This document shows positions 46,097 through 48,526 of a DNA stretch of 59,749 bases, piece by piece. The notes below the pieces were generated by a model. That model had not been told where the DNA came from and searched no databases. It was given only the letters and a program-made list of their open reading frames with translations. Within the stretch, counting starts at the first letter, position 1. Every line of letters begins with the position of its first letter. The stretch is taken from NCBI GenBank assembly GCA_028275825.1, contig JAPWTX010000005.1:1-59749 (forward strand). The letters run 5' to 3'. This DNA comes from Ignisphaera sp. (GTDB lineage: Archaea > Thermoproteota > Thermoprotei_A > Sulfolobales > Ignisphaeraceae). Both the position numbers and the translations under genes were made by a program.

Positions 46097-46678
46097 GTGA
46101 ATCTCTTAAGTAAGTTTGTACGTGATTTACCGCTATTTTTCGCCATAGCACTTCTCACTATCTTTTTACTATCAATCATAGCGTTATATCTGCCCCCACC
46201 TGAAGAAACGATATCCGAATTTCGCGAAGCTGGCAAAGAATTGAAGGAAATGATTAATATTTCATCATTCACAATCCGTGCTATAATGATATTCCTGAAT
46301 AATGCTAGAGTTAACACCATGCTGGCTGTACCTTTCCTCTCAATAATTATGTATCCCACAATGGTTATCGCCACTGCCTGGACATTGAGAATAGCACTTC
46401 TAGAGATCTCAAATAACACAGCTGCTTTACAAGAATCCTTATATCAAGCAATCATAGTACTTTTAATATCTCCGCATACGTATCTTGAAATGCTTTCATA
46501 TAGCATTACCTTCACGTGTTCAAATAAGCTCATGATAGCATTGCTGAGGGATTTGAGGAAGAGGAAGAGGATTGCAGAAGATATAATATTGTACTACGTA
46601 CTTGCCATAGCAATCTCTTTTTCACTGCTTTTCACAGCAGCTTTTGTCGAATCATATTTAATATCAATTTCTGAATGA
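46097..46678 (+). CDS. SpoIIM-like integral membrane protein
   Basis: A 193-residue protein with four to five hydrophobic spans: LPLFFAIALLTIFLLSIIALYL, MLAVPFLSIIMYPTMVIATAW, IIVLLISPHTYLEMLSYSI and a C-terminal span. The order FLNN(A)R, a hydrophobic hairpin, then SPHTYLEMLSYSITF matches the DUF95/SpoIIM family, where PHG-x-LE is conserved. Function in archaea is unknown. GTG at 46097 with GGTG ten bases ahead. Overlaps the SAM hydrolase region by four bases in the longer reading of that gene. Confidence 0.7.
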   Translation: MNLLSKFVRDLPLFFAIALLTIFLLSIIALYLPPPEETISEFREAGKELKEMINISSFTIRAIMIFLNNARVNTMLAVPFLSIIMYPTMVIATAWTLRIALLEISNNTAALQESLYQAIIVLLISPHTYLEMLSYSITFTCSNKLMIALLRDLRKRKRIAEDIILYYVLAIAISFSLLFTAAFVESYLISISE

Positions 46679-46689
46679 GGTGCCCTGCA

Positions 46690-47508
46690 GTGAAAAAGCC
46701 CTGTAAAGTTATCGCATTTTTAACTGATTTCGGCTATGAGGATCCCTATGTAGCGGCAATGAAGGGTGTGACCATTGATATTTGTCCCGAGGCAAAGGTT
46801 ATTGACATCACTCATTCTGTGCAAAGCTTTGACATTGATGCTGCTGCTTTCATCTTATTCGCCACATATAGATACTTTCCACAGGGCACAATTTTTGTAG
46901 TTGTTGTAGATCCAGGTGTAGGTAGTGAGCGCAGACCTTTGTTAATGGTTACAAGAAACTACTACTTTGTTGGACCCGATAATGGTGTTCTGACAGCTGC
47001 TGCTGAAGATGATGGTATTGAGGCTGTAATAAACCTTGAAAACGATTTGCGCTTTAGAAAGCCTGTTTCAAGCTCTTTTCATGGAAGAGATATTTTTGCA
47101 CCTGTTGCTGCATCACTTGCATGCGGTGTTGAACCAGAGCTCTTTGGATCTAGACAACCTATTGAGAGCATTAAGAGGTCTACTGTGGGCATCTACATGA
47201 GTAAGATTAGCCTAAACTGCGCTGAGCTAAGGGTTATATATATTGATAAGTTTGGTAATGTAATGCTTTCTCAGTACTACAATTCTATTGCAAATGCGCT
47301 AAGCATATCAATGGGTGAGGAGGTTTCTGTGTATAGTGGTGAAAAGGTTTTCAGAGCAGCTGCGAAAAAGGTGTTCTCTATTGCTAAAGAAGGTGAGCTA
47401 GTTCTTTATGAAAATAGCTTTGGACTTGCAGAGCTAGCTGTAAATAGGGGTTCAGCGAAAGAACTATTAAATGTGACACGGGGACATGTTGTAAAGATAT
47501 GTAAATGA
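46690..47508 (+). CDS. S-adenosylmethionine hydrolase / hydroxide adenosyltransferase (DUF62)
   Basis: Family that hydrolyses SAM to adenosine and methionine. Motifs: FLTDFGYEDPYVAAMKGV, ITHSVQSFDIDAAAFIL, VVVDPGVGSERRPLL, FVGPDNGVLT and FHGRDIFAPVAASLA, with the C-terminal domain IDKFGNVML. GTG at 46690 is seven bases after GAGGTG, giving 272 residues; an ATG at 46675 overlaps the ribosome-binding site. It is co-oriented and probably co-transcribed with the SpoIIM-like gene. Confidence 0.92.
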   Translation: MKKPCKVIAFLTDFGYEDPYVAAMKGVTIDICPEAKVIDITHSVQSFDIDAAAFILFATYRYFPQGTIFVVVVDPGVGSERRPLLMVTRNYYFVGPDNGVLTAAAEDDGIEAVINLENDLRFRKPVSSSFHGRDIFAPVAASLACGVEPELFGSRQPIESIKRSTVGIYMSKISLNCAELRVIYIDKFGNVMLSQYYNSIANALSISMGEEVSVYSGEKVFRAAAKKVFSIAKEGELVLYENSFGLAELAVNRGSAKELLNVTRGHVVKICK

Positions 47509-47530
47509 GTAGAATGCCGGGGGTGACTCA

Positions 47531-47585
47531 CCCATGCTCATCTAAGCCCCGCTACACGGGGTTAGAGATTGCATGGGCTACAGAT
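47531..47585 (+). ncRNA. H/ACA-like guide RNA candidate
   Basis: Lower stem CCCATGC (47531-47537) pairs with GCATGGG (47571-47577). The upper stem CTAA-CCCCG/CGGGG-TTAG (about 47542-47551 and 47557-47565, one bulged G) has a five-base loop. Between them lies a two-sided internal loop. An ACA triplet stands at 47580-47582, and the distance from the upper stem to ACA is 14 nt, the hallmark of a pseudouridylation pocket. A kink-turn or K-loop, normally required in archaea, is not evident. It lies 22 bases after the SAM hydrolase stop. The rest of this gap shows nothing. Confidence 0.4.
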
Positions 47586-47672
47586 AATCTGGTGCAGAAC
47601 TCAGCTTAAAAGTTTTCAGTAAGGGTTGGAGCTCATCATTGTAGTCAGATTTGGAGTCACTCATCACTAAAC

Positions 47673-48149
47673 TTAGTGAGAAATAGTTCTATAATGAGAA
47701 TATAAACTGTTAATGCTATCAGCGCAATTCGCTTGCATCATGTTACAGAAACTCAGCTCAGATGTCTTCATCATCAACTCATATACATTTCTACCGTTAT
47801 TTAAAAACTCTGAGGGCTTCACTACGTAGAAGTCATCATTGTAATAAACTACTATACCAAACATACGATCTATTTTCCTATATATACTTGTAAGAAGGTT
47901 GTAGGGAACAACAACGTATATGTAATCACTAAAAGGAATTCTTCTATACAGTTGCCTGATCAGCCTAGGTTTAACCCTGGTTTTCACTTCAAATACATGT
48001 ATAATAGGCCTTGAGCCATCATTTTCAAAGACAAGCACATCAATTTCATACCCCAATACCTTGCAATTTTTACATACAGCCAGACCTACAGAAGTCAGCT
48101 TCTTATACAATAAATCAACAATACTAGCTTCACTAAAAGTCTTTAACAT
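47673..48149 (-). CDS. PD-(D/E)XK nuclease-like protein, 158 aa
   Basis: The core ASIVDLLYKKLTSVG, then YEIDVLVFENDG and HVFEVKTRVKP, shows the helix-strand-strand arrangement with catalytic Asp and E-V-K of the restriction-endonuclease-like fold, followed by a helix RLIRQLYRR. The C-terminus is unstructured with three cysteines. Possible roles are DNA repair or restriction; no methylase or partner is adjacent. ATG at 48149. Confidence 0.7.
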   Translation of the reverse strand: MLKTFSEASIVDLLYKKLTSVGLAVCKNCKVLGYEIDVLVFENDGSRPIIHVFEVKTRVKPRLIRQLYRRIPFSDYIYVVVPYNLLTSIYRKIDRMFGIVVYYNDDFYVVKPSEFLNNGRNVYELMMKTSELSFCNMMQANCADSINSLYSHYRTISH

Positions 48150-48297: not shown

Positions 48298-48386
48298 ACT
48301 AAATAACTACAGTATTACTATCAGAACTCAAAATAGTGCACGAGCCTTACAGCAAATTAGTGCCTAACACAACATATAGTTAGTGG

Positions 48387-48521
48387 AGCCAAACCCTGTG
48401 ATGTGAGTGTTCAACCACACGGCACGTCTTCAGGTCAGGAGCTTCAAGGGTAATAAAGCCCTTGGAGATCCTGGCTTGAAGGCTTTCGCTGTGTGGTTGA
48501 ACACCCACATCACAGGGGGCT
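48387..48521. repeat. 135-bp near-perfect inverted repeat (giant hairpin)
   Basis: The arms 48394-48420 and 48491-48517 pair over 27 positions with one mismatch. AGCC/GGCT extends them outward after a three-base bulge, and a further imperfect stem leads inward to a seven-base loop TAATAAA at 48451-48457. Nearly all of the 135 bases are thus in one hairpin. It ends six bases from the stop of the archaemetzincin gene. It could be a MITE-like non-autonomous element or a structured 3' UTR/RNA. No clear target-site duplication was seen. Confidence 0.75.
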
Positions 48522-48526
48522 AAACC

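What the first reader, a model, noticed from the sequence alone, without database searches (positions are those of the whole stretch)
48387..48521. 135-bp near-perfect inverted repeat beside archaemetzincin
The outer 27-bp arms differ at one position and almost the entire element folds into a single long hairpin with a seven-base loop. This is far beyond a terminator-sized structure. It may be a MITE, an RNA element controlling the amzA transcript, or a dsRNA-like RNA of its own.
Basis: seen in the sequence. Interest (0 to 1): 0.6.

Follow-up and report, generated by a model that had tools for sequence, protein, structure and literature searches.

The report
Nuclease gene paired with hairpin RNA
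The long hairpin is real and is not tied to archaemetzincin: in 20 related hot-spring archaea it sits directly beside a gene for a small nuclease-like protein, its two ends are conserved while most of its stem changes freely but stays paired, so nuclease and probable RNA look like two halves of an undescribed unit.

Summary
The inverted repeat at 48387-48521 is real: -101.5 kcal/mol as + strand RNA, z -14.7. It is single-copy in its genome (Ignisphaera relative), so it is not a MITE. A covariance model finds one hairpin per genome in 9 of 11 genomes of the genus and in two family members; folding beside a protein hit adds nine more in a second family. Across these 20, the apex (about GGGTRATRRGCCC) and base (GCGCC, 3-nt bulge ... 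GGGCGAGACC) are conserved, while the 45-70 bp stem has unrelated sequence but stays paired. The constant neighbour is not amzA but a small PD-(D/E)XK nuclease-like protein (window 47673-48149, minus strand, 'c0'), adjacent in all 20 loci in three relative orientations. A GTATTAC element lies within 150 nt upstream of the hairpin in 18 of 20. G-U pairs exceed A-C mismatches 96:47 on the motif-bearing strand, favouring a functional transcript (or single-stranded DNA hairpin). Outer arms are nearly perfect, as replication template switching would give. Best reading: a hairpin RNA that partners the c0 nuclease as cofactor or inhibitor. Binding and transcription are not shown. Rfam, Pfam, PADLOC and PDB gave no family match.

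The parts
48385..48526 (+). Hairpin RNA candidate (whole covariance-model match, 158 model positions)
   Evidence: R1 match 85.1 bits, R2 match 122.8 bits, E 8.3e-30; fold -101.5 kcal/mol, z -14.7
48387..48393 (+). Conserved 5' base: AGCC of the 4-bp basal helix plus the 3-nt bulge AAA (family motif G(C)GCCARMCC)
   Evidence: Alignments; helix 1 is 100% paired in 10 sequences
48394..48517 (+). Main stem and loop: outer part near-perfect, inner part with G-U pairs and small bulges; sequence not conserved between species, pairing conserved
48448..48461 (+). Conserved apex GGGTAATAAAGCCC
48518..48526 (+). Conserved 3' base GGCTAAACC (family motif GGGGCTAAAC / GGGCGAGACC)
48312..48318 (+). GTATTAC element 73 nt upstream of the hairpin
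   Evidence: 22 matches within 150 nt upstream of 20 hairpins (7.3 per kb) against 0.15 per kb elsewhere
47673..48149 (-). c0: 158-aa PD-(D/E)XK nuclease-like protein (E35, D37, E54-x-K56, Q66 invariant), divergent from the hairpin, constant neighbour
   Evidence: weak UPF0102/Hjc/NucS/sce7726 matches; hhalign to Hjc 87.5%; dN/dS 0.08-0.20 between close relatives

Best explanation
The repeat is the gene of a long hairpin RNA that forms a two-part unit with the neighbouring PD-(D/E)XK nuclease-like gene c0. Shown by comparison: conserved tips, a stem that keeps pairing but not sequence, single copy, obligatory adjacency to c0 in any orientation, and a shared upstream GTATTAC element. Inferred: the RNA is transcribed from the + strand, folds into a rod of about 45-70 bp with a fixed apical loop and a fixed base with a 3-nt bulge, and is bound in trans by c0, which would read tips and duplex shape rather than stem sequence. 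The RNA would then act as cofactor or as inhibitor (a decoy duplex) of the nuclease. Perfect outer arms are probably kept up both by selection and by template switching during replication.
For: One hairpin per genome, only in genomes with strong c0. c0 is adjacent in 20 of 20 hairpin loci: divergent about 200 nt away (11 loci), same strand 108-129 nt upstream of c0 (3), or convergent and overlapping the 3' end of c0 by 22-64 nt (6). Covariation: 62 of 70 pairs with double changes, 96.2% of cells paired, 0 of 500 shuffles, slid controls 34-45%. G-U over A-C 96:47 after removing conserved tips and near-duplicates, p 5e-5. GTATTAC enrichment about 49-fold. c0 under purifying selection with its catalytic residues invariant. 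A more distant c0-like protein in G011 and five further homologues have neither hairpin nor GTATTAC.
Against: No transcript data. No RNA-binding domain recognised in c0. 47 A-C mismatches remain, and G-T is also the milder mismatch in DNA, so a single-stranded DNA hairpin would give the same bias. One member (G150) folds better on the other strand and G147 equally well on both. Arm homogenisation by template switching can produce covariation without selection. The GTATTAC motif was found after looking. Nine of the 20 hairpins were found by folding beside c0, so for those the adjacency is partly built into the search.
Confidence: 0.5

Rival explanations
1. The functional form is DNA: the palindrome extrudes as a cruciform or single-stranded hairpin and is the recognition or cleavage site of c0, which resembles Holliday-junction resolvases; the pair would be a small selfish or site-specific element of about 0.85 kb.
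For: c0 aligns to Hjc over the catalytic core; outer arms are near-perfect; the unit sits in at least three chromosomal contexts within one genus, and G002 keeps a c0 remnant with no hairpin.
Against: Strand-specific G-U preference, conserved loop and 3-nt bulge on one strand, single copy in every genome, no target duplications or clean empty site found.
Confidence: 0.25
2. A transcription-level element: an oversized terminator, insulator or attenuator that regulates c0 or neighbouring genes in cis.
For: The 3' side is followed by short T-rich stretches in several loci; in G140, G150 and G151 it lies upstream of c0 on the same strand.
Against: Relative orientation to c0 differs (divergent, co-directional, convergent), which no single cis mechanism explains; far longer than a terminator; conserved apex and base not needed for that.
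Confidence: 0.12
3. A MITE or other non-autonomous transposon, or a chance palindrome.
For: Near-perfect terminal arms.
Against: Single copy; conserved tips with stem sequences unrelated between copies; z -14.7.
Confidence: 0.02

Closest known systems
Type III toxin-antitoxin systems (ToxIN, CptIN, TenpIN)
   Same: A nuclease-like gene with an adjacent small structured RNA that could inhibit it
   Different: There the RNA is a tandem repeat upstream of the toxin, in one operon, cut into pseudoknots; the toxin is an RNase of a different fold. Here: one long hairpin, free orientation, PD-(D/E)XK protein (comparison from general knowledge)
OMEGA / IS200-IS605 TnpB-omegaRNA
   Same: Nuclease gene with a structured RNA encoded beside it
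   Different: No RuvC-type nuclease, no transposon ends, no guide segment recognised; the arm of the window copy has no second good match in its own genome
Hjc and UPF0102/YraN-like PD-(D/E)XK proteins
   Same: Catalytic core D...ExK...Q; hhalign 87.5% to Hjc
   Different: All 15 genomes examined carry a true Hjc elsewhere; c0 is below every Pfam and NCBIfam cut-off shown
RNA hairpins maintained by template switching (PMC8794818, abstract seen)
   Same: Would explain perfect stems and clustered compensatory changes
   Different: Describes a mutational process, not this RNA or its nuclease partner

Membership tests
MITE | Multiple dispersed copies sharing sequence | tested here: not met
   Only itself in G000 by BLAST; one R2 place per genome in relatives
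MITE | Target-site duplications or clean empty sites | tested here: inconclusive
   G001 and G002 lack the unit between the SAM-hydrolase-like gene and amzA, but G002 keeps a decayed c0 3' end; boundaries not exact
Rfam RNA families | Match above a gathering score | tested here: not met
   None over the hairpin; only miRNA precursor models far below cut-off
Type III toxin-antitoxin | Repeat-array RNA antitoxin in one operon with a ToxN-like toxin | tested here: not met
   Single hairpin, mostly divergent or convergent; no toxin family match in Pfam or PADLOC
OMEGA (TnpB/IscB) | RuvC/HNH nuclease with omegaRNA | tested here: not met
   c0 is PD-(D/E)XK-like, about 120-185 aa, no TnpB/IscB match
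PD-(D/E)XK superfamily | D...ExK catalytic motif in an alpha-beta core | tested here: met
   E35, D37, E54, K56, Q66 invariant in 19 sequences; profile match to Hjc. Structure model too poor to use (pLDDT 46), so the fold itself is not tested
Hjc Holliday junction resolvase | Score above Pfam PF01870 cut-off | tested here: not met
   Best 14.6 bits against cut-off 21.1; true Hjc encoded elsewhere
Intrinsic terminator | Short stem followed by a T run at the 3' end of a gene read in the same direction | tested here: not met
   58-72 pairs in the first seven members; flanking genes in the window are both on the opposite strand
Functional transcribed RNA | Detected transcript | not testable with these tools
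   No RNA-seq held

The most novel reading that the evidence does not exclude
A ribonucleoprotein nuclease of hyperthermophilic archaea whose RNA partner is defined by shape: fixed loop, fixed base and a long, nearly perfect duplex of arbitrary sequence that acts as cofactor, ruler or decoy for a PD-(D/E)XK enzyme.
Probability: 0.35. Interest if true: 0.85.

Novelty: new variant of a known kind. Interest (0 to 1): 0.62.

Why it matters
Pairs of a nuclease and a structured RNA have repeatedly turned out to be defence, mobility or addiction systems. Here the RNA is unusual: both ends are fixed and the long duplex between them drifts at about the neutral rate without losing its pairing. It is also a clear natural example for asking how selection and replication template switching share the upkeep of a long hairpin, since close pairs of genomes (G004/G005) catch compensatory changes in the act.

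Tried and rejected
amzA link: dropped after the hairpin was found away from amzA in several genomes. MITE: dropped. A guide role of the stem: the window copy matches nothing else in its genome; one exact 20-mer in a viral contig lies in an apparently coding stretch of an unrelated AT-rich contig and is taken as chance. Kink-turn at the base: the bulge is followed by Watson-Crick pairs, not tandem G-A. Viral origin: no c0 relative in viral contigs by tblastn, phages only at E 0.09, plasmids none; PHROG profiles phrog_12193 and phrog_2776 match at 1e-7 to 1e-6 but were not followed. c0 structure from one sequence was unusable. The 'rest of locus' figures for longest exact arm are an artefact of N padding and were ignored. 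The literature searches found no description of this pair; they covered open-access papers only.

Full report
Observation. The repeat is present as described. Arms 48394-48423 and 48488-48517 are 93% complementary, the outer 27 bp have one mismatch, and the + strand folds at -101.5 kcal/mol with z -14.7; the - strand gives -84.2. It is the strongest inverted repeat of the window. In the 1.81-Mb genome it has no second copy. The closest named relative of the neighbouring amzA is from an Ignisphaera MAG, so the window is from Ignisphaera or a near relative.

Finding the family. A DNA search of relatives gave only weak hits to the apex, but these fell in hairpins as long as the query. Seven hairpins share the apex AAGGGTRNTAAAGCCCT, the 5' base GGGCCAAACC and the 3' base GGGGCTAAAC (with small changes), while their stems are unrelated in sequence. 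A covariance model from one member (R1) found all of them; a second model from five (R2) found one hairpin place per genome in 9 of 11 genomes of the genus (absent in G002, 75% complete, and G010) and in G013 and G014 of the same family, and none in the other families sampled. In the order-wide search (214 genomes, stricter filters) every genome hit also carries a strong c0; G006 was missed there by the filter but found.

The partner gene. Comparing genes around the first 11 loci showed that only one gene is always there: c0, opposite in direction, with its start about 160-310 nt from the hairpin. In the window it is 47673-48149 (-). Searching with the c0 alignment found nine further strong homologues in another family of the order (E 2e-30 to 4e-41) and one in G011. 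All nine have a long hairpin beside c0; G011 does not. The relative position differs: 108-129 nt upstream on the same strand in G150, G140, G151; convergent and overlapping the 3' end of c0 by 22-64 nt in G141, G142, G144, G145, G146, G147. So adjacency is conserved in 20 of 20 hairpin loci while orientation is not, which points to a trans-acting pair rather than a cis regulator. (For the nine second-family loci the hairpin was looked for beside c0; the eleven first-family loci were found by the hairpin alone.) The second-family base motif GGCGCCAGCC ... GGGCGAGACC links to the first family through G004/G005 (GGCGCCAAACC ... GGGCGAGRC).

amzA is not the partner. It lies beside the unit in G000, G003, G007, G008 and near it in G009, but elsewhere in G001, G004, G005, G006 and G014. 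Neighbours in other genomes are ordinary genes such as ThiF, FGGY kinase, amidohydrolase, acetyltransferase; a PLD-domain gene adjoins c0 in G004-G006. In G002 the place between the SAM-hydrolase-like gene and amzA matches the window just upstream of and into the 3' end of c0 (72% identity over 144 nt) but has no open c0 and no hairpin, so the unit can be lost.

c0. Eleven of 19 members match UPF0102 weakly, one or two match NERD, Hjc and BpuSI_N, and others match NucS, YraN and sce7726 models, none as a family assignment; profile-profile alignment to Hjc gives 87.5% over D...ExK...Q. E35, D37, E54, K56, Q66 are invariant. dN/dS is 0.08-0.20. All 15 genomes searched have a true Hjc elsewhere. 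No PDB sequence relative; PADLOC shows no defence family (one weak CARF_HEPN match at 0.0045). I infer a metal-dependent nuclease; activity is untested.

RNA or DNA. Ten first-family hairpins give 96.2% standard pairs with double changes at 62 of 70 pairs; no shuffle of 500 reaches this and slid controls give 34-45% (the alignment was fitted to the structure, so it leans towards it). With a symmetric scoring that treats G-T and A-C alike, 135 G-U against 61 A-C are left on the motif-bearing strand (p 1e-7), and 96 against 47 after removing the tips and near-duplicates (p 5e-5). That is what selection on the + strand transcript predicts, though a single-stranded DNA hairpin would show the same. 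Non-Watson-Crick positions are rarer in the outer stem (10-17% in deciles 2-4) than nearer the apex (29-37% in deciles 5-8), as expected if replication that folds back near the loop copies one arm onto the other outwards; template switching that creates and maintains RNA hairpins is described in PMC8794818 (abstract). Between G004 and G005 there are five double changes, all compensatory transitions, two single changes that keep pairing, and none that breaks a pair. Twelve changes in about 138 paired positions is close to the synonymous divergence of c0, 0.084: the stem sequence drifts freely and its pairing does not.

Upstream element. GTATTAC occurs 22 times within 150 nt upstream of the 20 hairpins (18 loci), 7.3 per kb against 0.15 per kb elsewhere, often as an inverted pair. 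It stays with the hairpin even where c0 is on its other side, so it belongs to the hairpin unit. It was noticed after the fact; its role (promoter element, regulator site or nuclease site) is open. It is absent around G011's c0-like gene and five other distant homologues.

Conclusion. What is established by comparison is a conserved hairpin with fixed tips and free stem, found only together with a PD-(D/E)XK-like gene. That the hairpin works as an RNA partner of c0 is the best-supported reading, not shown. A DNA-level cruciform site is the main rival.

Noticed in passing
window 47517-47590 (+), with relatives in G001, G002, G003, G007, G008: A second conserved GC-rich hairpin just after the SAM-hydrolase-like gene (CCGGGGGTGACTCACCCATGC...GCATGGGCTACA); looks like an H/ACA-type guide RNA. 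Not tested against a model.
   Followed up: partly
window 47613-47671 (-): Likely C/D box guide RNA: sub-threshold sR5 match 25.6 bits, E 0.0022; G007 has an sR46-like match of 31.3 bits in the corresponding region (L107).
   Followed up: partly
L117 6425-7126 (+), also G004 and G006: A PLD-domain protein adjoins c0 in three genomes; possible third member of the unit there.
   Followed up: no
PHROG families phrog_12193 and phrog_2776: Viral protein families of unknown function match c0 at 1e-7 to 1e-6; which viruses carry them and whether hairpins lie nearby was not examined.
   Followed up: no
window 46675-47508 (+): SAM hydroxide adenosyltransferase (SAM_HAT) gene next to a SpoIIM-like membrane protein at 46097-46678.
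   Followed up: no
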